Source: Serinicoccus chungangensis
GTDB lineage: Bacteria; Actinomycetota; Actinomycetes; Actinomycetales; Dermatophilaceae
NCBI RefSeq assembly: GCF_001483745.1
Contig: NZ_LQBL01000028.1
Location: 643,656 to 707,655, forward strand
Length of the DNA: 64,000 bases
Reading direction: 5' to 3'
The position numbers and the translations under genes are program-made. Below, one piece after another: positions 20,950 to 30,871 of the stretch. The notes beneath the pieces were generated by a model. That model had not been told where the DNA came from and did no database searches. It worked only from the letters and a program-made list of their open reading frames with translations. Position 1 is the stretch's first letter. Each line of letters opens with the position of its first letter.

Positions 20950-23517
20950 TCACGGGCCGGCCGGGGCGGCGCTCCAGGGCGCTCCCCACGCCACGAAGGC
21001 CCCGGCGAGCGGGTGGGCCGAGGTGGCCGCCCGGCTCAGCGCCTCGTCGGCCGGCAGTCCCCGGGCGAGCAGCTCGTGGTAGCGCGGCAGGTGGTCCGCA
21101 GCCACCTCGTCGGGGATCCGGCAGGGTGCCGCCACGACGCTCTCCACCCCCAGCCAGAGCAGGCCGGCCGCCAGACCGAGCGCCGCCGACCCGCCGCGGT
21201 GGCGGGAGCGGCCGGAGTCGCAGGCGGAGAGGACGACGTGGGAGGCGCGTCGTGGCTGCCGCTCCAGGTCGGCCAGGAAGTAGGGGCCGTCGGCCAGCCA
21301 GAGCGAGGAGAACATCGGGCTGTCGTCCCGGTGCCGGCCGTGCGCGGCGACGTGGACCAGGTCGTGCTCCCCCAGGGCCGTCGCGAGGTCCGCGGCGGTG
21401 GTCTCGTGGTGCGCGCGGCCGTGCGGCCAGACCGCCGCCACGCGGTCCACCTCGTCGGTGGCGCGGCCCAGCTCCGGACCGGCGAGGGCGGCCACCGTCG
21501 GGGACGTCACCTCGGTGCCGCCCCTGGCCCAGCCGCTGACGCTGGGGGCGACGGGTGTCGGCTGGTCGCGACGGCTGGGCAGCAGGCCCCACGGCACCGA
21601 GGCGAGCGCCGGGACGGGCACGACGAGCGCCCGGCCCTCCAGCCGCAGGGGCCGCAGCACCCGCTCGTCCAGGGCCCGCGCGGAGCGCTCCAGCGAGCGC
21701 TGCAGGGTCTGCTCCATCGGCCCGCCGCAGGCCCGCGCCCCGGTCTCGAGGTCGGCCGCCAGCACACGTGCCTCCTCCAGGGCGGGGGCCAGCGGTCCGA
21801 GGTCGACCGTGCGCAGGCGCCGCGCGGTGCCGGCCACCGCGAGGAGCCGGTCCTGCGACTCGAGGAGGCAGACCAGCGAGGTGTCCCGCTCGGCCAGGCG
21901 CCCCAGCGACCGCGCGAGATCCTCCCGGGTGACCATCCCGCGGGGTCCGCCCTCGCCCGGGGCCGACCAGGACAGGGCGGCGACGGAGCGCTCCAGCTCC
22001 CGCAGCCGACCGCGCATCCGGTGGGCGCGGTCCAGGTCCTCCCGGACCTGGTGCCGCAGGTGGCGCAGGACGGTGGTGCGTCGGGCCAGCTCGGGGTCGG
22101 CCGGCGGCAGCACGGCGGGTGACCTGCTGGCGGCCTCGCGCCAGCGCTCCACCGCGAGCAGCGTCTCCCGCGGTGCGTCCGGGGCGACCGCCAGGTCCAG
22201 CCGGGCCAGGTCCTGCGCGTGCAGGTGGGTGGCGGCCCGCAGCTCCAGGCTCGAGCTCCCGGCCAGCGTCTCGGTGAGATCGGCCAGGGCGGCCCGCAGG
22301 TGGCGTCGTGCCGTCGGGGCGTCCTCGGCGTCCCGGGCGGCCGAGGCCAGCACGCCCCGGGCCCGCAGCCGGGTACTCAGCGACCCGACATGGGTGAGGT
22401 CGGCGGTGGCCCGCAGCAGCCGGACCGCCTCGGCCGTCCGCCCGCGGTCGACCTCGGTCTCCGCGACGACGAGCCGCGCGAGGTCCGCGGCCACGTGGTC
22501 GCCGTCGGCGTCGAAGGCCTCGACCAGCGCCCGCCCGCGCCGGGCGACGTCCCCGAGGCGTCCACCGCGCCGTCGGCGCGCGTCGAGCAGCACCAGCTCC
22601 GCGCGGCGCCGCAGACCCGGGGCCCGGTGCTGCAGGAGCCGCCGGGCCCGGGCCGCCACCTCGGCCGCCTCCTCGTGCCGCCCCTCGACGAGCTCGGCCA
22701 TCGCCAGGTCGCCCTGGATCTCCCCGGCCACGAGGCGCTGCCCCGTGCTCTCGGCCTCCGTGGCGGCGCGGAGGAGGAGGTCGCGGGCCTCGTCGACGAG
22801 GCCGGAGTCGAGCAGCGTCCGGGACCTCCCGTGGAGGGCCACCGCCCGCGACGCCCCCTGACCGAGCCGCTCGATGTCGCGGTACAGCCGCAGGGCCCTC
22901 GGCAGGTCGCCGGACAGGGCGACCGTCTGCGCCAGGTTGTGCCGGGCCATGAACTCCTGCACCGGCAGGTCGTGCTCGCGGGCGATGCGCGCCGCCTCGG
23001 CGAAGTCGGTCTCGGCGCTCGAGGGGTCCGGACCGTCGACGCGGACCGCGCCCCGCGAGAGCAGCAGCTCGAAGCGGTCGGCCGGACCGAGCTCGTCGAC
23101 GCTGGCCAGGGCCCGCTCCAGGTGCTCCAACGCGATGCCGGTCCGCCCGGTGCGCCCGTTGATCATCGCCAGCTGCAGCCGGCACTTCGCGACCAGGACC
23201 ACCCGGACCTCGGGCTCGAGGCGCTCGGCCAGCTCGAGCGCCCGCCCGGCCGCCTCCAGGGCGCTGTCGGCACCGTGGCGCTGCACCAGGGAGGTGCTCA
23301 ACGACAGCAGGAGGCGCACCTCGGCCTCGGAGGCCGCGGCATCCCCCGAGACCACCGACTCCATGCCCGGCACCCGCGAGGGCCGCTGCTCGCGGAGCAG
23401 CCGCAGGGCGCGGCGCAGCACCCTCTCCCCCTCCGCCGGTCGACCCTCGACGTTGGCCGACCGGCCCTGGACGAAGAGCGACCCGACCGAGGCGGGGGCG
23501 GCCGTTGCTCGCGGCAT
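20950..23517 (-). CDS. TPR-CHAT caspase-like protease
   Basis: The 855-residue protein has an N-terminal helical solenoid of TPR-like repeats (about 30-480), rich in Arg/Ala/Leu. It ends in a CHAT domain (about 590-855), the caspase/separase-like peptidase fold. The catalytic dyad is visible as His726 in HVAAHGRH and Cys766 in VVLSACDSGRS, so it is predicted active. There is no signal peptide. It is the last gene of a four-gene operon with an S8 protease, a sigma factor and an unknown protein. Bacterial CHAT proteins are often activated by partner-sensing TPR regions and cleave a specific neighbour, but the substrate here is unknown. Confidence 0.85.
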   Translation of the reverse strand: MPRATAAPASVGSLFVQGRSANVEGRPAEGERVLRRALRLLREQRPSRVPGMESVVSGDAAASEAEVRLLLSLSTSLVQRHGADSALEAAGRALELAERLEPEVRVVLVAKCRLQLAMINGRTGRTGIALEHLERALASVDELGPADRFELLLSRGAVRVDGPDPSSAETDFAEAARIAREHDLPVQEFMARHNLAQTVALSGDLPRALRLYRDIERLGQGASRAVALHGRSRTLLDSGLVDEARDLLLRAATEAESTGQRLVAGEIQGDLAMAELVEGRHEEAAEVAARARRLLQHRAPGLRRRAELVLLDARRRRGGRLGDVARRGRALVEAFDADGDHVAADLARLVVAETEVDRGRTAEAVRLLRATADLTHVGSLSTRLRARGVLASAARDAEDAPTARRHLRAALADLTETLAGSSSLELRAATHLHAQDLARLDLAVAPDAPRETLLAVERWREAASRSPAVLPPADPELARRTTVLRHLRHQVREDLDRAHRMRGRLRELERSVAALSWSAPGEGGPRGMVTREDLARSLGRLAERDTSLVCLLESQDRLLAVAGTARRLRTVDLGPLAPALEEARVLAADLETGARACGGPMEQTLQRSLERSARALDERVLRPLRLEGRALVVPVPALASVPWGLLPSRRDQPTPVAPSVSGWARGGTEVTSPTVAALAGPELGRATDEVDRVAAVWPHGRAHHETTAADLATALGEHDLVHVAAHGRHRDDSPMFSSLWLADGPYFLADLERQPRRASHVVLSACDSGRSRHRGGSAALGLAAGLLWLGVESVVAAPCRIPDEVAADHLPRYHELLARGLPADEALSRAATSAHPLAGAFVAWGAPWSAAPAGP

Positions 23518-23523
23518 CCTGGC

Positions 23524-24015
23524 TCAGAGGGTGAACGTCGGGGTGATGACCGTGCGGCCCCCGGGCGGACGCACGACGAGGTAGGCCGGGCCGCAGCTGA
23601 CGGAGGCCAGCACGAACCGGCCGTCGCGCACCGGCGCCCACTCCGAGCGGCCGTCCGGCCGGGCCAGCTCGATCTCGTCGACGTCGCAGGTGAGCCATCC
23701 GTCGACCCGCGCGGTCGCGTCGTGCTCGGCGGTCACCGTCACCATGATGCTCACGCTGTCGGTGCTGAAGGTGACCGTCGTCGCCTGGTCCGGCTCGTCG
23801 TCGTCGCCCCGCGTGAGCGCCAGGGGCTCCCGGGTCAGCTCGGCCACCTCCGCGTGCAGCGCCCGGACCGTGAGGGCGAAGGCGATCCGCTCGGTCAGCC
23901 CGGCGGGGCACGGGTCCAGCCGGGTGACGGTCTCCCGCAGCTCGGTCAGCACGGTGACGTCGCCCTCGTCCCACGGCTGGGGACCGACACCCCCCGTCTC
24001 GCGGTCCTCGTTCAT
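23524..24015 (-). CDS. Conserved-context hypothetical protein between sigma factor and CHAT genes
   Basis: The 163-residue acidic protein has no motif that I can assign. A helical N-terminal half (about 18-65) is followed by a beta-rich half with STDSVSIMVTVTAEHDATAR and ends PGGRTVITPTFTL. It has no signal peptide or membrane segment. The ATG overlaps the sigma factor stop (ATGA), and the CHAT gene starts 6 bases after its stop. The arrangement suggests a role such as anti-sigma factor, adaptor or CHAT substrate; none of these is shown by sequence. Confidence 0.7.
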   Translation of the reverse strand: MNEDRETGGVGPQPWDEGDVTVLTELRETVTRLDPCPAGLTERIAFALTVRALHAEVAELTREPLALTRGDDDEPDQATTVTFSTDSVSIMVTVTAEHDATARVDGWLTCDVDEIELARPDGRSEWAPVRDGRFVLASVSCGPAYLVVRPPGGRTVITPTFTL

Positions 24016-24623
24016 GGTCCTGCCCACCTCTCGTCGGCGGCCAGCGAGCGCCGCAGCTTGTCCAGGCACCGTCCACGGGTCGGGCCGATGCTCCCCCGGG
24101 GCATGTCCAGCGCCGCCGAGATCTCGTCGTAGTCGGGGCGGTCGCAGAAGGCGACGATGCGCAGCAGCTGCCGGCACCGCTCCGAGAGCCCCTGCACCGC
24201 CGCCCACAGGGTCTGCTGCCGCTCGGTGAGGACCGCCAGCGCCTCCGGGCCGGGGTCGGCCCCACCCGGGTCGACGGTCCCCGTCGGGTCGTGCTGGGTG
24301 CGGCGGGACAGCTTGGCCGTGCGCCAGCTCTCCCGCTTGACCGACACCACCAGCCACCCCAGCACGGCCTCGCTCTCCCGGATGTCCCGGGCCCGCTCGA
24401 CCAGCCGGATCCACACGTCCTGGACGACGTCCTCGGCGACGTCCCGGTCGCAGCCGTGGGCGCGGGCGACGTTCCACAGCAGCGGGGTCACCAGGTCCAC
24501 CAGCTCGCCCAGGGCCTGGTCCTGCCCCTCGCGGTAGCGGTGGAAGCAGGCACCGGCCTGCTCGCCGAGGGAGGGCCGGTCCCGTTCGGTCCGGACGTCG
24601 GGGTCGTCGTCGGTGAGCATCAC
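24012..24623 (-). CDS. ECF-like RNA polymerase sigma factor
   Basis: The 203-residue protein has sigma region 2 (about 25-95, with CDRDVAEDVVQDVWIRLVER) and region 4 (about 135-195, with LSERCRQLLRIVAF and ISAALDMPRGSIGPTRGRCL). The helix-turn-helix segment MPRGSIGPTR is typical of one actinobacterial ECF-like group. No transmembrane anti-sigma gene is adjacent. The GTG start overlaps the S8 protease stop (GTGA). It is the natural candidate regulator of both this operon and the divergent lanthionine-enzyme operon. Confidence 0.85.
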   Translation of the reverse strand: MMLTDDDPDVRTERDRPSLGEQAGACFHRYREGQDQALGELVDLVTPLLWNVARAHGCDRDVAEDVVQDVWIRLVERARDIRESEAVLGWLVVSVKRESWRTAKLSRRTQHDPTGTVDPGGADPGPEALAVLTERQQTLWAAVQGLSERCRQLLRIVAFCDRPDYDEISAALDMPRGSIGPTRGRCLDKLRRSLAADERWAGP

Positions 24624-26308
24624 GTCTCCTCGAGCAGGCGTCGCAGGGCTTCGGCGGCCCGTCGGCGCATGTCCTCCGGGGCATCCTTCAGGTCATCCTT
24701 CGCCCGCTGCGCGGCCAGGTCGGCCGCCAGCTGGCCGGCCAGCCACGGGGCCGCGAAACTGGTGCCGCTCCACACGCCGAACCCGCCGCGCAGGTCGTCC
24801 GGGTCGGGCGTGGCCCGGTCCGGCCCACCGTGCGGGCCCGGGGTGGAGCGGTCGGCCTGCGCCGAGGCGTCGAAGGTCACGGGCAGCGTGCTGACCACGT
24901 TGACCCCGGGCCGGTGGGTGGTCACCCACGGCCCCGCGTTGCTGAACATCGCCACCGTGCGCCCGTCGGGGTTGAGCGCCCCGACGCAGACCAGCGGCAC
25001 CGGCTGGTCGGTGTCCAGGACGGTCCCGGGCCCCACCGCCCAGCCGCCGGGGTACATGGGGGTGGTGGTCGCCTGGTTGCCGGCCGCGGCCACCACGGCG
25101 ACGCCGGCCCGGCCGAAGAGGTCCAGGAGGCGACGCACCGGATGATCGGGCACCACCCCGTCCTGGTGGTAGAAGCCCAGCGACAGGTTGAGCACGTCGA
25201 CGACACCGCCGGCCTCGTCGAAGTCCTCGCGGCCCTGGTCCTGGTGGAGGTGGTGCAGCACGAGCAGGACCGCCAGCGTGCGGGTGACGTCCTGCTCGGC
25301 GGCCAGCCCCGCGGAGTCGAGCACCGGCAGCGCCACGATCCGGGCCCCCGCTGCCGCCTGACGCACGACCCCGGCCACGAAGGTCCCGTGCCCGGAGAGG
25401 AGGTCCAGGGCACCGGTCAGCTCGTCCTCGACCCCGGTGCCCTCCGGCCACGGGGCCGGACGGCCGCCCGGCAGGACGGGCCACCCCAGCAGCGAGCGCA
25501 GCTGCAGGGCGAGGTCGGACCCGGTGAACCACGGGTGCTCCCCGAGCCCGGTGTCGGGGACCACGACGACCGGGGCGCGGCGGGCGCGCCCGGCGCGGGT
25601 GGGGTCGGGCAGGGCCAGCTGCACGGGAGCACGGTCGGGCGCGATGCCCGGCACCCCGGTCTGGCCGCCCCAGTAGAGCCCGCCGCCCTGGCCACCCCAG
25701 TACAGGCCGCCGCCCTGGCCGCCCCAGTAGAACCCGCCGCCCCCGGGCAGCACCAGGTGCTCCAGGTCGACGTCCTCGAGGCCGGCGGCGCGCGCGGCCA
25801 GCAGCAGCGACCACGGGTCGGGCTCCTGCACCCGGGCGTCGGGGACGACGTAGACGCGCGAGGCGTACCCGGCGTCCAGCTCCGCCACGCTCACCGAGCC
25901 CACCCGCAGCCCCGGGTCCAGGCGGGTCACGGGGTCGTCGGGGTCCATCGGCCCGCCGCGGACCTCCTCGAAGCCCTTCCCCGCCCCGGGCTCGGCCCCG
26001 GACTCGACCGCGAGCAGCAGCCACCGCCCGAAGGCCTCGTCGGCGGCGTCGGGGCGCAGGGTCACGGCATACCCGGCCTCGCGCAGCACCCGCTGCAGCT
26101 CGTCGACGCGGTCGGCCGCGGAGACCCCCAGCAGCCCGGCGACGAGCAGCCGGGTGTTGAGGTATGCCGTCGCCGACGGGGCGGGCAGCCGCGTACCGCT
26201 GCGCGGGTCCGCCTCCCGGGGCGCCGTCGCCGGGTCGAGCACGCGCGCGTCGTGGCGGCGGAGCAGGGAGCCGGGCAGGTGCAGGTCGACGGGCTCGACG
26301 TCGGGCAT
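24620..26308 (-). CDS. Cytoplasmic subtilisin-like S8 protease with GGQ repeats
   Basis: The 562-residue protease has the S8 triad Asp252 (VVPDTGLG), His307 (SGHGTFVAG) and Ser517 (SGTSFAAPWL). It has no signal peptide or typical propeptide. The 250-residue N-terminal region is unusual and contains three copies of a nine-residue YWGGQGGG-type repeat (about 193-217) just before the catalytic domain. It is the first gene of the sigma/CHAT operon. It may process a partner protein or itself; the repeats could be a flexible linker or cleavage zone. GTGA coupling joins it to the sigma gene. Confidence 0.88.
   Translation of the reverse strand: MPDVEPVDLHLPGSLLRRHDARVLDPATAPREADPRSGTRLPAPSATAYLNTRLLVAGLLGVSAADRVDELQRVLREAGYAVTLRPDAADEAFGRWLLLAVESGAEPGAGKGFEEVRGGPMDPDDPVTRLDPGLRVGSVSVAELDAGYASRVYVVPDARVQEPDPWSLLLAARAAGLEDVDLEHLVLPGGGGFYWGGQGGGLYWGGQGGGLYWGGQTGVPGIAPDRAPVQLALPDPTRAGRARRAPVVVVPDTGLGEHPWFTGSDLALQLRSLLGWPVLPGGRPAPWPEGTGVEDELTGALDLLSGHGTFVAGVVRQAAAGARIVALPVLDSAGLAAEQDVTRTLAVLLVLHHLHQDQGREDFDEAGGVVDVLNLSLGFYHQDGVVPDHPVRRLLDLFGRAGVAVVAAAGNQATTTPMYPGGWAVGPGTVLDTDQPVPLVCVGALNPDGRTVAMFSNAGPWVTTHRPGVNVVSTLPVTFDASAQADRSTPGPHGGPDRATPDPDDLRGGFGVWSGTSFAAPWLAGQLAADLAAQRAKDDLKDAPEDMRRRAAEALRRLLEET
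25658..25732 (-). repeat. 27-bp tandem repeat inside the S8 protease gene
   Basis: Three near-identical 27-bp units, the last incomplete, encode the nine-residue units FYWGGQGGG, LYWGGQGGG and LYWGGQTG. The copy number could vary by slippage. Confidence 0.9.
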
Positions 26309-26476: not shown

Positions 26477-27793
26477 ATGGAGCACGACGCGGTAGCCGCC
26501 GCACGCATCCGTCCGACCAAGGAGCAGGTCGAGGACGACCTGCTCGCCCTCGACGGGGTCGTCGGCGTGGACATCGGCGAGAAGATCAGCGACGGCAAGC
26601 CCACCGGTGAGCTGAGCATCGTCGTCTACGTCGAGGCCAAGAAGTCGCCCTCCCGGGTCCCGAAGGGACAGCAGGTACCCGCCGAGGTGGGAGGGGTCCC
26701 CACCGACGTGCAGGAGCTGGTCATCGAGCTGCAGGGCGGACCGGGGCTCTACGCCGGCGACCCGCTGAGCGACACGAGCAAGCACACGACGATCCGGGGT
26801 GGCATCAGCATCGGTCCGGCCCGGCACCAGAACGCGGGGACGGGCGGGGCGCTGGTGCGCGACACGAGCACCGGGGCGGTCAGCCTGCTCACGAACTTCC
26901 ACGTGGCCTGCGTGGACACGTCGTGGGCGGCGGGTGAGTCCGTCCTGCAGCCGGGTCGCTTCGACAGCGGTGACCCGGCGACCGACCAGGTCGGCACCCT
27001 GACGCGCGGCGTCATCTCCGAGCAGGTGGACGGGGCGGTGGTGCGTCTGGACGGCGACGAGACCTGGGCCGACGAGGTGGTCGACATCGGCGCCGTCGGC
27101 GGCAGCGCCGCCGCGGTGGTCGGGACGGCGGTCCAGAAGCGGGGCCGGACCACCGAGCACACGCACGGCGAGGTGGTGTCGGTGGACGCGACGGTGACGC
27201 TGGACTACGGCGACGGTGTCGGTATGCGGACCCTGCGCCACCAGATCTCGGTCCGGCCGGCCACCGGGGCGCCGAGGTTCTCCGACCGGGGCGACTCCGG
27301 CTCGGTCGTCATGAACGACAGCCGGCAGGTGGTCGGGCTGCTCTTCGCCGGTGCCCGGGACGGCAGCCTCACCTTCGCCAACCCCATCGCCTCGGTGCTC
27401 TCCGAGCTGGAGGTCACCCTCAACCCGCCACGGACGGTGCTGCCCCCGCCGCTGCGCTCGAGGATCAGCGTGCTGTGCCCCACGCGCAGCGAGCCCTGGT
27501 GCCCCGGGGCACGGGTCACCAGGCCGTGGGTCAGCTGCCCGCCGGTGCTCCGGACCCGTCCGTTCGTCGACTGCCCTCCGGTCCGCCTCACGCGGGTGCC
27601 GGACTGCCTGCCGCCGGACAGCCGTCTCTGCCCGCCCGTCAGCCGCGTCTGCGGTGGCTGGCAGAACCCCTACGAGCAGGGCTGGGAGGAGGACCCGGGC
27701 GCCGACGCCGCGTGGTGGGCCGGCTACCACGCCGCCCTGGACCAGGTCGCCCAGGAGCTCGACGAGGCGGAGCAGGACGGGCCGCTCGCATGA
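26477..27793 (+). CDS. Trypsin-like (Nal1-like) protease with Thr/Ser-Arg...Cys repeat tail, candidate lanthionine substrate
   Basis: The 438-residue protein has an N-terminal domain with GVDIGEKISDG. Its trypsin-like core has His142 (TNFHVAC), a likely Asp185 and Ser274 (DRGDSGSVV). Residues 334-392 form a tail with seven cysteines (334, 342, 354, 366, 377, 385, 392). Six Thr/Ser-Arg pairs (336, 348, 360, 372, 382, 389) each precede a Cys by 6, 6, 6, 5, 3 and 3 residues; the Thr residues are exactly 12 apart. An acidic helical end follows. Three downstream coupled genes encode lanthionine-forming enzymes, so the tail is the best candidate substrate (inference). ATG chosen after an AGGAGG site; no signal peptide. 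Confidence 0.8.
   Translation: MEHDAVAAARIRPTKEQVEDDLLALDGVVGVDIGEKISDGKPTGELSIVVYVEAKKSPSRVPKGQQVPAEVGGVPTDVQELVIELQGGPGLYAGDPLSDTSKHTTIRGGISIGPARHQNAGTGGALVRDTSTGAVSLLTNFHVACVDTSWAAGESVLQPGRFDSGDPATDQVGTLTRGVISEQVDGAVVRLDGDETWADEVVDIGAVGGSAAAVVGTAVQKRGRTTEHTHGEVVSVDATVTLDYGDGVGMRTLRHQISVRPATGAPRFSDRGDSGSVVMNDSRQVVGLLFAGARDGSLTFANPIASVLSELEVTLNPPRTVLPPPLRSRISVLCPTRSEPWCPGARVTRPWVSCPPVLRTRPFVDCPPVRLTRVPDCLPPDSRLCPPVSRVCGGWQNPYEQGWEEDPGADAAWWAGYHAALDQVAQELDEAEQDGPLA
27482..27652 (+). repeat. 36-bp-period repeat encoding the Cys tail
   Basis: The first four repeats begin with Thr codons at 27482, 27518, 27554 and 27590, a strict 36-bp period that gives T-R-x4-C-P units. Two shorter S-R-x-C units follow, ending at Cys392. 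Confidence 0.85.
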
Positions 27794-28686
27794 GGAGCGC
27801 CCCGGCCCTGCTGGCGCAGGCGATCACGCAGGGGGTGGTCGCCTGCGCCGGCGTGCTCGACGGGGAGGTCCGGCTGGTGCCGTGCCCGCGCAGCAACCTC
27901 GTGCACCGCCTCGACGTGGACGGTGTCCCGGTGGCCTTCGTCAAGCAGCAGGGCGAGGCGACCGCGAGCGACGGGCTGGCCACCGTGGCCCAGGAGGCCG
28001 CGGTGCTCGGGGCGCTGCAGGGAGGGCCGGTGCCAGGGCTGCTGCTCGCCGACGAGGAGACGGTCTGGACCACCGCGGTCCCCGGGGCCCCGCTGCACGA
28101 GACGCTGCCCCGCGACCCGCTCGCGGTGGCGCACGCCCTGGGGCAGACCCTCGCCACCCTCCACCGTCACCCGGTGCCGACGCCGACGGCCCTGCCGCGC
28201 GCCACCCGGCCCTGGCCGTTGACCGGCCAGGCGCCGGCGAGCGTGCGCAGCGCGCCACCGGGGTCGGCGGCGGCCCTCCTGGCCGCCCAGGTGCTGGACG
28301 AGCCGGGCGAGGAGGCGCGCGTCGCGCGTGGCGCGGCGCGGCGATGGGGTCGTCGGCACCTCGTCCACGGCGACCTCTCCTCGGACAACGTCCTGGTGGC
28401 GTGGGGCCCGGCCGGTCCGGTCGCCCGTCTGGTGGACCTCGAGGACGGAGGCCTCGGTGAGCCCTCCTGGGACCTCGTGTGCGCCCTCCGGGTCCTCGAC
28501 GACTGCCTCGGTCTCGAGCACGTCGACACCGCCCGCCGGGAGCTGCTGGACGCCTACGCGGCCGGTGCGGGCCCGGGGGTGGAGGACCCCGCGCTCCGGC
28601 TGGTGCACGACGTCATGGCCGACACCCGCAGCGCGCTCAGCGACCTGGTGTCCTGGGGTCACCTCCAGCAGGTGCTCGCCTCATGA
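27790..28686 (+). CDS. APH-fold phosphotransferase, class V lanthipeptide kinase-like
   Basis: The 298-residue protein has the aminoglycoside-phosphotransferase fold: a likely ATP lysine (VAFVK, Lys52), the catalytic loop VHGDLSSDN (193-200) and the metal-binding LVDLEDGG (Asp216). An antibiotic kinase is possible by fold alone. However, its order before HopA1-like and LanC-like genes matches systems in which an APH-like kinase phosphorylates Ser/Thr of a peptide before elimination. ATGA overlap couples it to the protease gene upstream and to the next gene. Confidence 0.75.
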   Translation: MRSAPALLAQAITQGVVACAGVLDGEVRLVPCPRSNLVHRLDVDGVPVAFVKQQGEATASDGLATVAQEAAVLGALQGGPVPGLLLADEETVWTTAVPGAPLHETLPRDPLAVAHALGQTLATLHRHPVPTPTALPRATRPWPLTGQAPASVRSAPPGSAAALLAAQVLDEPGEEARVARGAARRWGRRHLVHGDLSSDNVLVAWGPAGPVARLVDLEDGGLGEPSWDLVCALRVLDDCLGLEHVDTARRELLDAYAAGAGPGVEDPALRLVHDVMADTRSALSDLVSWGHLQQVLAS

Positions 28687-29579
28687 GCACCGTCACCCGG
28701 GCGCTGCTGGACGCGGCGCGGGTCGCCGGCACCGGGCCCGCCCCGGCCGACGCCCGCGAGCTGGCCGACCGGCTCTACGCGCAGTGGTACGCCGCCCCGG
28801 TCACGCCCGCGCGGGACCAGGTCGGTCCGCCGCTGGCCGGGCTGCTGGACGCCCGGCTGCTCGGCGTGGGCGGGTGGCGGCCGGTCACGGTCCGCCGGCT
28901 CGACCCGGGCGGGGGGCTGGTGGTCCGGGACGACACCGGGCGCCACCACGCCGTCCTGCCCGGCCGGTGGGCGCGTCCGCCGGCCTCCGGGGGGACCCCA
29001 CGGACCTCGTTGCCGCCCCGGGAGGGCCAGCAGATCCTCGTGCCCCCCGTCGGCGGCCCGGTCCTCGCCGCGTCGTGGTGGCGCACGTGGTCGACGGAGT
29101 GGGTGCATCCCGTGCACCCTGGGCCGCTGACCCGGATCTACCTCTGTCCCCGGCTGGACCACCTGGTCGAGACGGTGGGTCGGGCCGTCGAGGCGCTCGT
29201 GGGGCTGCGCGGCGCCTGGCTGCTCAAGTGCGCCGTCGACGACGCGGCCCTGCTGCGGCCGGACCGGACCGTCGTCTACGTCCCCGACGAGACGGCACCG
29301 GCCGCGCTCGACGTGCTGGAGGACGCGACCCGCGGGTGGCTCGAGCCGCACACCCCACCGCTGACGCGGGGGCACGCCCCCGGTCTCGGCTGGGCGCAGG
29401 ACGACGGCGACGGCGCCAGCTTCGGGGAGAACCGGTGCGCGGCGCTGGCCCGGGGGTTGGCGGCGTGGCGGCAGGCCGGGAGCCCGCAGGACGCCGCACC
29501 GCTGGTCCGGCTGGCCCTGCGCGAGGCCGGCCTCGACGACCGGCGGCCGCACCTGCGCCGGGCGGAGCCGGCGTCGTGA
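28683..29579 (+). CDS. HopA1-effector-like protein, candidate phospho-Ser/Thr lyase
   Basis: The 298-residue protein resembles the HopA1 effector family. Its second half has RIYLCPRLDHL, GAWLLKCAVDDA (a candidate catalytic lysine) and LAPGLGW-like and GASFGENRC segments. HopA1-like proteins serve as lyases in class V lanthipeptide and thioamitide clusters, turning phosphorylated Ser/Thr into dehydroamino acids. The family call rests on remembered motifs, not on a search. It overlaps both neighbours by 4 bases, so kinase, lyase and cyclase are made together. Confidence 0.68.
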   Translation: MSTVTRALLDAARVAGTGPAPADARELADRLYAQWYAAPVTPARDQVGPPLAGLLDARLLGVGGWRPVTVRRLDPGGGLVVRDDTGRHHAVLPGRWARPPASGGTPRTSLPPREGQQILVPPVGGPVLAASWWRTWSTEWVHPVHPGPLTRIYLCPRLDHLVETVGRAVEALVGLRGAWLLKCAVDDAALLRPDRTVVYVPDETAPAALDVLEDATRGWLEPHTPPLTRGHAPGLGWAQDDGDGASFGENRCAALARGLAAWRQAGSPQDAAPLVRLALREAGLDDRRPHLRRAEPAS

Positions 29580-30871
29580 GCGCGCGCCGGACCAGCCCGG
29601 TCCGAGCCGGGGACGGGGGCGGGACCGCCGACGCCGCCGGGACACGGGAGGGCGTGGAGGAGCTCGCCCGGGCGGCGACCCAGGCGGTCGTCGACGCCGC
29701 GCTGCACGACGGCGGGCGGGTCGGCTGGGTGACCTGGTCGCGCTCCGACGCCGTCAGCACCTCGTTGCAGGTCGCGGGGCCCGAGGTCTACGACGGCGAC
29801 GCCGGCGTCGCCTGGGCCCTGAGCCTGCTGGCGCCGCTGCTGCCCGACCCGGAGGAGGCGCTCGGCCTCGCCCGGGCGACCGTCGCCGCACCCACGCGGG
29901 CGCCCGGCACGCCGGGCCTCCTGGACGGCGCGGCCGGGGTCGCCCTCGTGCGGGCCGCCCTCACCGGGGAACCGGCCACCGCCCCCGCTCCCGGGTCTCT
30001 CACGGGCTCCAGCGACCACCTCGACGGGTTGTCCGGGCTGCTGCTCGCGACGGTGGGCCTGGGGGCGTCGTCCCGCGAGACGGACGCCGTCGGGCGGGCG
30101 CTGCTCGACTGCGGCCGGGCCGACGGGGAGGGGTGGTGCCATCCGGGACCGCCGGACGGGCAGGGTGAGGCGGCCCGGCCGCTCACCGGCCTGGCGCACG
30201 GCAGCAGCGGCGTCCTGCTCGCGCTCGCCCACTGGCTGGCGAGCGACCCGGCCCCCGCCCTGGCGAGCGCCGCGCGCGAGCGGTTCCTGCGGACCTGGCT
30301 CTGGGAGAGCGCCTGGGTCGACCGCGTGCTCGGCTGGCCGGACCTGCGGGACGACCCCCCGGCCTACCCCGTCCTGTGGTGCCACGGCGCCGCCGGGGTG
30401 ACCGCGGTCCGGCTGGAGCTGGGCCGGCTCGCGGAGGCGGGCGTCGACCTCGGGGTGCCCGCAACCGCGCTGCGCAGCCAGGCGGACGCGGGGCTGCTGC
30501 TGTGCCGCGAGCAGGTGGGGCTGAGCGCCGAGGCGGCGCGTCGGCAGCTGGCGGAGGCCGGGCCGGCGTCGGTCCGGCTCGACCCCCACGACGCCGGGCT
30601 GACGCTGTGCCACGGCCTGGGCGGTCCGGTGGACGTCCTGGCGTGGGCGGCCGCGCACGGCGACACCGAGCACCTGGAGGCGACCCGCGCGGCGGTGCTG
30701 CAGGTGGCCGGGCTGCTCGGCGAGGACCCGCACCTCTGGCCAACGGGCCAGCGGACCCGCGGTGGCTACGGGCTGTTCCAGGGCCTGTCGGGCACGGCGC
30801 TCGTCCTGGCCCGGCTGGCGCGTCCGGAGCTCGGGTTGCCCTCGCCGGGGCTGTTCGGCGTCCCGGTGTGA
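29576..30871 (+). CDS. LanC-like lanthionine cyclase
   Basis: The 431-residue protein has the alpha-toroid signatures of LanC: repeated GLxG segments (HLDGLSGLLL, LTGLAHGSSG, GYGLFQGLSG). The zinc-binding residues are Cys269 (VLWCHGAAG) and Cys345-His346 (LTLCHGLGG). These match the Cys, Cys-His ligand set of NisC, so it is predicted to catalyse addition of cysteine thiols to dehydroamino acids. The GTG start overlaps the lyase stop (GTGA). The gene ends 4 bases before the convergent ndk stop. Confidence 0.87.
   Translation: MSARRTSPVRAGDGGGTADAAGTREGVEELARAATQAVVDAALHDGGRVGWVTWSRSDAVSTSLQVAGPEVYDGDAGVAWALSLLAPLLPDPEEALGLARATVAAPTRAPGTPGLLDGAAGVALVRAALTGEPATAPAPGSLTGSSDHLDGLSGLLLATVGLGASSRETDAVGRALLDCGRADGEGWCHPGPPDGQGEAARPLTGLAHGSSGVLLALAHWLASDPAPALASAARERFLRTWLWESAWVDRVLGWPDLRDDPPAYPVLWCHGAAGVTAVRLELGRLAEAGVDLGVPATALRSQADAGLLLCREQVGLSAEAARRQLAEAGPASVRLDPHDAGLTLCHGLGGPVDVLAWAAAHGDTEHLEATRAAVLQVAGLLGEDPHLWPTGQRTRGGYGLFQGLSGTALVLARLARPELGLPSPGLFGVPV

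What the first reader, a model, noticed from the sequence alone, without database searches (positions are those of the whole stretch)
26477..27793. Protease carrying its own lanthionine-type substrate tail
The trypsin-like protease ends in a 59-residue tail (334-392) with seven Cys and six Thr/Ser-Arg pairs. The four Thr are exactly 12 residues apart, and each Thr/Ser precedes a Cys by 6, 6, 6, 5, 3 or 3 residues. This is the layout of a multi-ring lanthipeptide. The next three genes, all stop-start coupled, encode kinase-, lyase- and LanC-like enzymes, while no separate small precursor gene is visible. If true, the tail of a folded protease is cross-linked to thioether rings, an arrangement I do not know from described RiPP systems, where the precursor is a free peptide.
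Basis: partly seen in the sequence, partly recalled or inferred. Interest (0 to 1): 0.93.

Follow-up and report, generated by a model that had tools for sequence, protein, structure and literature searches.

The report
Protease with a lanthionine-type tail
A bacterial protease ends in a tail that looks made to be stitched into a row of small sulfur-bridged rings by the three enzymes encoded right after it; the same layout recurs in related bacteria and on a second, unrelated protease fold, so an enzyme rather than a small peptide seems to be the thing modified.

Summary
In 17 of 17 distinct proteases of this type the triad is kept and 139 of 140 tail Cys follow an (S/T)(R/K) pair by 3-6 residues; 0 of 2,000 shuffles per tail reach this. 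Kinase, HopA1 lyase and LanC genes follow on the same strand with catalytic residues intact (one LanC cut by a contig end). Of 29 protease homologues examined outside this group, none has a Cys tail or the enzymes in its 1.5-kb flanks. Three loci carry Ser/Thr-Cys tails on another fold, subtilisin S8, again followed by these enzymes. Six kinase-less loci keep HopA1 relatives that lost the catalytic Lys and Tyr. No widely shared separate precursor was found within 4 kb. Best reading: class Vb-type lanthipeptide enzymes (LanK/LanY/LanC) modify the tail of a folded, probably cytosolic protease. The enzyme types are known; an enzyme-borne substrate is, in my searches, undescribed. Ring chemistry is unproven; whether the tail stays on or is released is open.

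The parts
26477..27793 (+). Trypsin-fold serine protease with C-terminal Cys tail (438 aa); triad H142, D185, S274
   Evidence: profile resembles NARROW LEAF 1 protease, best PDB match 7y77 E 2.9e-6; Pfam Trypsin 20 bits, just under the 20.6 cut-off
27458..27652 (+). Tail residues 328-392: seven (S/T)-Arg...Cys units, putative (methyl)lanthionine region
27707..27772 (+). C-terminal conserved element, residues 411-432 (..WWAGYHAALDQVAQELD..), putative docking helix for the modifying enzymes (inferred)
   Evidence: G416, Y417, A419, A420 invariant in 15 sequences; best match outside the family is in the S8 tail of L033
27790..28686 (+). APH-type kinase (LanK-like)
   Evidence: APH E 1.4e-15; K52, H193, D195, N200, D216; NCBIfam LxmK E 6.3e-5, below cut-off
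28683..29579 (+). HopA1-type phospho-Ser/Thr lyase (LanY-like)
   Evidence: E 4.6e-14; R151, K182, R192, Y199 invariant, matching CaoY R187, K219, R229, Y236 by order and spacing (paper read); profile match to PDB lyase 9dk1_B E 2e-16
29576..30871 (+). LanC-like cyclase with zinc ligands C269, C345, H346
   Evidence: E 4.5e-23
24620..26308 (-). S8 peptidase, divergently transcribed; associated module, not found in all relatives
   Evidence: E 2.8e-13
24012..24623 (-). ECF-type sigma factor of the associated module
23524..24015 (-). Small protein of 163 aa between sigma factor and CHAT, no family match
20950..23517 (-). TPR-CHAT (caspase-like) protein of the associated module
   Evidence: CHAT E 3.6e-21

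Best explanation
The operon makes a probably cytosolic trypsin-fold protease whose C-terminal tail is the substrate of a class Vb-type lanthipeptide enzyme set. The kinase phosphorylates the Ser or Thr of each (S/T)-Arg dyad, the HopA1 lyase eliminates phosphate to give Dha/Dhb, and LanC joins each to the Cys 3-6 residues downstream. The result is a row of 7-10 small thioether rings on a folded enzyme. The conserved C-terminal GYxAALxxV element probably docks the enzymes, a leader placed at the end. Shown: genes, order, coupling, catalytic residues, 1:1 pairing, co-variation, recurrence on S8 proteases. Inferred: the reactions, ring pairing, docking element, cytosolic place. Most likely use (a guess, about 0.4): the tail stays on the protease as a protease-resistant binding or regulatory arm. 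Proteolytic release as a payload is nearly as likely (about 0.35).
For: 17 of 17 distinct trypsin-type proteases (window included) keep H/D/S and a tail with 7-10 Cys; 139 of 140 Cys are paired with an upstream (S/T)(R/K), the exception having Thr-His (L023); 0 of 2,000 shuffles in each. In all 16 relatives kinase, HopA1 and LanC follow on the same strand; protease-kinase gaps run from -4 to 86 bases. HopA1 R/K/R/Y intact in 17 of 17, the six kinase positions in 17 of 17, LanC zinc ligands in 16 of 17, the other (L022) cut off by a contig end. The genome-contig scan with HopA1 gave 15 loci, 14 with this protease, tail and enzymes (6 of the 14 are contigs already held, judged by equal contig lengths). 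29 homologues outside the group: at most 2 Cys beyond the core, no enzymes in the flanks of up to 1.5 kb. S8 subtilisins L030, L031, L033 carry 17, 17 and 8 tail Cys, each with Ser/Thr 3-6 before, 0 of 2,000 shuffles reaching the count, followed by the same enzymes; 29 other S8 loci have no such repeat tail and no enzymes in their flanks of about 1.5 kb. Kinase-less loci (6): HopA1 Lys and Tyr lost in 6 of 6, LanC zinc Cys lost in 5 of the 5 with a LanC relative, no tailed protease seen. The protease shows no evident signal sequence by eye (no tool run), so disulfides are unlikely.
Against: No chemistry is shown. The kinase is far from the LxmK model cut-off (22 of 315 bits). In the S8-tail loci the kinase active site departs from the pattern: the aligned Lys is Val in L030 and L031, and HGD reads HAD, HSD and NHD (not tested further). 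Characterised class V precursors bear an N-terminal leader and a free core; here the putative recognition element is C-terminal and its cross-family match is modest (18.9 against 16.9 bits for the next, home-made matrix). HopA1/LanC enzymes in other lineages have separate short precursors, so a precursor elsewhere in the genome is not excluded; the own genome could not be scanned frame by frame. One unrelated-looking 153-aa frame in L203 also reaches nine units (not followed up). Nine weaker protease match rows had no fetched locus and were not examined. The residue losses in L034 and L098 rest on low-scoring alignments (about 100 bits).
Confidence: 0.8

Rival explanations
1. The protease domain is only an oversized leader: the tail is modified, then cut off by the protease itself or by the neighbouring S8/CHAT peptidases, and the free multi-ring lanthipeptide is the product. 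It shares the chemistry of the best explanation and differs in the fate of the tail.
For: Homologous trypsin cores carry a different C-terminal cargo: about 275 extra residues in 4 of 29 homologues, identified as Endonuclease_NS in the two scanned, L053 and L056. Kaur et al. 2020 (section 32 read) propose that trypsin/NucA systems deploy the nuclease by a proteolytic cascade; that L053/L056 belong to that system was not tested. Of the 17 trypsin-type loci 14 have a matching S8 gene and 13 a CHAT gene in the stretch held.
Against: No exporter or immunity gene was recognised by eye beside the operon (outer neighbours were not profile-searched). The linker between core and tail shows no obvious conserved cleavage motif (reading). 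The conserved C-terminal element follows the rings and would stay on the product unless trimmed too. The S8/CHAT module also occurs without this operon beside it (13 of 13 stretches), and no S8 or CHAT was matched in L026, L073 and L075.
Confidence: 0.35
2. The tail binds metal or forms disulfides, and the kinase/HopA1/LanC set acts on some other peptide encoded elsewhere.
For: Cys-rich repeats can bind metal; HopA1 sets elsewhere have separate short precursors.
Against: Strict 1:1 pairing of Cys with (S/T)(R/K) is not expected for metal sites; tails were seen only with the enzymes, on two protease folds; no widely shared small Cys ORF within 4 kb; no second tail-like match in the own genome (next E 0.47).
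Confidence: 0.07
3. The enzymes only dehydrate the tail, or LanC adds an outside thiol (for example mycothiol), so the tail carries electrophiles or thiol adducts rather than rings.
For: Glutathione adducts on dehydrated residues are mentioned as a side reaction in E. coli in the cacaoidin study (section 9).
Against: Cys are conserved one per Ser/Thr-Arg at ring-forming spacings, which an outside thiol would not need; LanC has the zinc ligands of a cyclase.
Confidence: 0.08

Closest known systems
Class Vb lanthipeptides (SmoA with its LanC cyclase SmoC; LanK + LanY + LanC)
   Same: Kinase, HopA1 lyase and separate LanC cyclase (from review PMC12328550, section 7; the SmoC paper itself is not held)
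   Different: There the substrate is a precursor peptide; here it is the tail of a folded protease, with no free precursor found
Cacaoidin dehydratase CaoK/CaoY (class Va)
   Same: APH kinase plus HopA1 lyase with the same order and spacing of catalytic residues (sections 6 and 9 of PMC9486802)
   Different: Precursor peptide CaoA with N-terminal leader; placed by the review in subgroup Va, without a specific LanC cyclase
HopA1-LanC RiPP families 11/20 and 22 of Eyles et al. 2021 (PMC8153245, section 16)
   Same: HopA1 and phosphotransferase beside or fused to LanC
   Different: Found through short peptides; no protease-borne precursor is mentioned in the section read
Trypsin/NucA conflict System 3 (PMC7159879, section 32)
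   Same: Trypsin domains fused to a NucA effector; homologues of our core carry such a nuclease
   Different: Cargo is a nuclease, not a Cys tail with its own modifying enzymes
Borosins and proteusins (recalled, no call)
   Same: RiPP precursors fused to an enzyme (borosins) or with a large enzyme-derived leader (proteusins)
   Different: In borosins the fused enzyme is the modifying one; here it is a protease with an intact triad

Membership tests
Class Vb lanthipeptide biosynthesis | APH-family kinase | tested here: met
   Pfam APH E 1.4e-15; catalytic K/H/D/N/D present
Class Vb lanthipeptide biosynthesis | NCBIfam LxmK equivalog score | tested here: not met
   22.2 bits against cut-off 315; a relative, not an LxmK equivalog
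Class Vb lanthipeptide biosynthesis | HopA1-type lyase with R/K/R/Y active site | tested here: met
   residues
Class Vb lanthipeptide biosynthesis | LanC cyclase with Cys-Cys-His zinc site | tested here: met
Class Vb lanthipeptide biosynthesis | Separate short precursor peptide with leader and core | tested here: not met
   No small Cys ORF within 4 kb shared by more than four other loci of 20; tail on protease instead. A distant unlinked precursor is not excluded
Class Vb lanthipeptide biosynthesis | (Methyl)lanthionine in the product | not testable with these tools
   needs mass spectrometry
Trypsin-like / NAL1-like serine protease | His-Asp-Ser triad | tested here: met
   17 of 17
Trypsin-like / NAL1-like serine protease | Pfam gathering score | tested here: inconclusive
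   Trypsin 20.0 of 20.6 bits, Nal1_C 20.5 of 26.1; PDB profile match to NARROW LEAF 1, E 2.9e-6
Trypsin/NucA conflict System 3 | NucA nuclease with the trypsin | tested here: not met
   No nuclease domain in the window protease or its seven scanned neighbours; present in homologues L053, L056
Known anti-phage defence systems (PADLOC-DB 2.0.0) | Match to a defence protein model | tested here: not met
   No match for the four operon proteins; weak S8 (E 5e-4) and CHAT (E 7.6e-7) matches only

The most novel reading that the evidence does not exclude
Lanthipeptide tails are exchangeable warheads of a protease relay. Trypsin- and subtilisin-fold proteases carry a C-terminal payload, a NucA nuclease in some lineages and a ladder of thioether rings in others; an S8/ECF-sigma/CHAT module senses damage or invasion and triggers cleavage, freeing a multi-ring lanthipeptide inside the producing cell.
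Probability: 0.15. Interest if true: 0.95.

Novelty: new variant of a known kind. Interest (0 to 1): 0.87.

Why it matters
If true, lanthipeptide machinery is used to remodel a working enzyme and not only to make small peptide products. Genome mining that looks for short precursors would miss such systems. The recurrence on two protease folds suggests a transplantable tail-plus-enzymes cassette, useful for stapling protein termini. It also raises a directly testable question: what a ring ladder does for a protease that often sits next to a caspase-like/sigma-factor module.

Tried and rejected
Disulfide or metal-binding tail: rejected as less likely because of the strict S/T-R...C pairing and the co-variation. 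Chance: rejected. The Arg of each dyad as a self-cleavage site: not supported; the residue at the classic trypsin specificity position before the Ser is Phe rather than Asp by my own count on the GDSGS motif (recalled numbering, no call). Mobile element: HopA1 has no match in the phage or plasmid collections at E 1e-5. Defence annotation: no convincing PADLOC match. L035 (from the weakest HopA1 match) has no gene of the set at E 0.01 and was dropped. Nine weaker protease match rows had no locus and were not examined. Of the 16 non-self matches I fetched 13; G013, G063 (kinase-less loci already held) and G122 were left out. L210 comes from a genome (G030) that has the tailed operon on another contig. 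In one search one of the 9 Cys counted for L033 lies at the edge of the protease core; 8 are tail Cys. Paper searches for a protease-borne lanthipeptide precursor showed none in their listings; one search returned no paper at all. The library holds open-licence papers only.

Full report
What is there. The four genes 26477-30871 (+) form an overlapping run: a trypsin-fold protease with tail, an APH-family kinase, a HopA1-family lyase and a LanC-like cyclase (overlaps read). Divergently upstream lie an S8 peptidase, an ECF sigma factor, a 163-aa protein and a TPR-CHAT protein. The window lies in a 3.56 Mb genome; its nearest named relatives are Serinicoccus.

The tail. Residues 328-392 contain seven Cys, each preceded by Ser/Thr-Arg at 6,6,6,6,5,3,3 residues. 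Across 17 distinct proteases of this type (window plus 16 relatives) the tails have 7-10 Cys; 139 of 140 Cys are paired with an (S/T)(R/K) dyad, the exception being Thr-His in L023; spacing starts at 6 (5 in L096) and ends at 3-5 toward the C-terminus. In each tail 0 of 2,000 shuffles reach the observed count. Among 15,958 stop-to-stop frames of the larger fetched loci (1.17 Mb, duplicates included), seven or more units per 80 aa occur in 23: 22 are these proteases and one is a 153-aa frame of L203 that I did not follow up.

Co-variation. A HopA1 search of 396 genomes of the order found 17. Besides the window: 7 have the tailed trypsin protease with kinase, HopA1 and LanC (L020-L026); 3 have S8 subtilisins with Ser/Thr-Cys tails and the same enzymes (L030, L031, L033); 5 have HopA1 without kinase beside S8-CHAT (L027-L029, L032, L034), four of these also with a LanC relative (in L034, on a 7-kb contig, none was found); 1 weak match (L035) has none of the genes. 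The named-genome scan returned 15 loci, 14 with tailed trypsin protease plus kinase, HopA1 and LanC (Serinicoccus 4, Knoellia 5, Janibacter, Nocardioides gansuensis, Arthrobacter sp., two Actinomycetales MAGs), and one Segetibacter locus without the protease. A Pfam HopA1 search of 396 genomes of the phylum found 13; of 8 stretches fetched, L096, of another class, has the whole set with tail, L094 has kinase, HopA1 and LanC with short precursors, and L098 has HopA1 without kinase beside S8 and CHAT.

Controls. Searching the protease core in 394 genomes gave 36 with a match, own included. Of the 29 non-self loci given, 25 end within 27 residues of the aligned core and 4 carry about 275 further residues, which are Endonuclease_NS in the two scanned. 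None has more than two Cys there, and none has kinase, HopA1 or LanC in flanks of up to 1.5 kb. Nine weaker rows had no locus and were not examined. Of 29 other S8 loci examined none has the repeat tail (at most 5 Cys) or the enzymes in the flanks. In the 13 S8/CHAT stretches fetched the tailed protease and the enzymes are absent, so that module is separable; one of them (L210) is from a genome with the operon on another contig.

Active sites. HopA1 R151, K182, R192 and Y199 match CaoY R187, K219, R229 and Y236 in order and spacing (paper section read). They are intact in the window, 16 trypsin-tail, 3 S8-tail and one short-precursor locus (L094), while the Lys and Tyr are lost in all 6 kinase-less loci (L034 and L098 by weak alignments). 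LanC Cys-Cys-His is intact in every tailed locus where the gene is complete and lost in 5 of 5 kinase-less loci with a LanC relative. In the S8-tail kinases the aligned position of the VAIK-type Lys is Val in L030 and L031, and the HGD motif reads HAD or HSD in these two and NHD in L033; I take this as alignment or family drift but did not test it.

Where the precursor is. In 20 loci, 346 small Cys-containing ORFs outside known genes gave no family shared by more than four other loci; the shared ones look like shadows of neighbouring genes (my reading). A short, fast-changing precursor could escape this test. A class-wide HopA1 profile search found 27 of 394 genomes; I fetched 20 stretches. 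No tailed protease was matched in any of the 20. Of the seven read gene by gene, several show short Cys-bearing peptides beside HopA1, most clearly L139 and L142. On a HopA1 tree of 47 rows the trypsin-tail, S8-tail and kinase-less rows lie outside a well-supported group of 20 (19 class-survey rows plus L094; 97/98); one long-branch row, L146, sits inside the trypsin-tail group and is unsure. Tailed proteases of the two folds need not share one origin.

Recognition. The last conserved element of the trypsin tails (GYxAAL..V) has its best match outside the family in the S8 tail of L033 (18.9 bits on a home-made matrix; next 16.9 in an unrelated frame). That is suggestive of a shared docking element, not proof.

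Mechanism. By the known chemistry of these families the kinase phosphorylates, HopA1 eliminates and LanC cyclises (cacaoidin study PMC9486802, abstract and sections 6 and 9; class Vb via review PMC12328550, section 7). The most economical reading is that they act on the tail. The protease has no evident secretion signal by eye, so a thioether is a better staple than a disulfide in the cytosol. What the ring-bearing tail does is open: a permanent arm or a releasable payload. The nuclease cargo on homologous cores and the System 3 proposal of Kaur et al. (section 32) give the payload idea some footing; of the 17 loci 14 have the S8 and 13 the CHAT gene in the stretch held.

Prior work. Eyles et al. 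2021 (PMC8153245, passages and section 16) describe HopA1/phosphotransferase pairs, 20% of HopA1 near or fused to LanC, found through short peptides. PMC7794033 and PMC9415263 were seen as passages only. My paper searches showed no protease-borne lanthipeptide precursor; other hits were seen as listings only, and subscription papers are missing.

Verdict. Substrate identity is strongly supported by genomics; chemistry and function are untested. New variant of a known kind: class Vb-type enzymes with an enzyme as substrate.

Noticed in passing
window 20950-26308 (-): S8 peptidase, ECF sigma factor, a 163-aa orphan and TPR-CHAT: the S8 and CHAT pair recurs in 13 of 13 fetched stretches of the order without the lanthipeptide-type operon beside it. 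TPR-CHAT plus ECF sigma recalls the CRISPR-associated Csx29 systems (recalled; listing only).
   Followed up: partly
L027, L028, L029, L032, L034, L098: HopA1 relatives that lost the catalytic Lys and Tyr, in five of the six with LanC relatives lacking the zinc Cys, kept beside S8/CHAT and without kinase: candidate pseudo-enzymes with a new role.
   Followed up: partly
window 24620-26308 (-), before the catalytic domain: Gly-rich repeats with Tyr-Trp (GGGFYWGGQGGGLYWGGQ) in the S8 peptidase.
   Followed up: no
L053, L056, L057, L064: Homologous trypsin cores with about 275 extra C-terminal residues; Endonuclease_NS nuclease in the two scanned, L053 and L056.
   Followed up: partly
L075:5971-6225: A second, short protease-like stretch (53% identical to residues 2-86) lies just after LanC, probably a remnant.
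   Followed up: partly
L139, L142: Kinase plus HopA1-LanC fusion with several short precursors ending in a Cys-rich CTAAFSCS..CC-like core.
   Followed up: partly
L203:896-1354: A 153-aa open frame with nine (S/T)(R/K)..C units, with no homologue of the enzymes in that stretch; may be a shadow frame.
   Followed up: no
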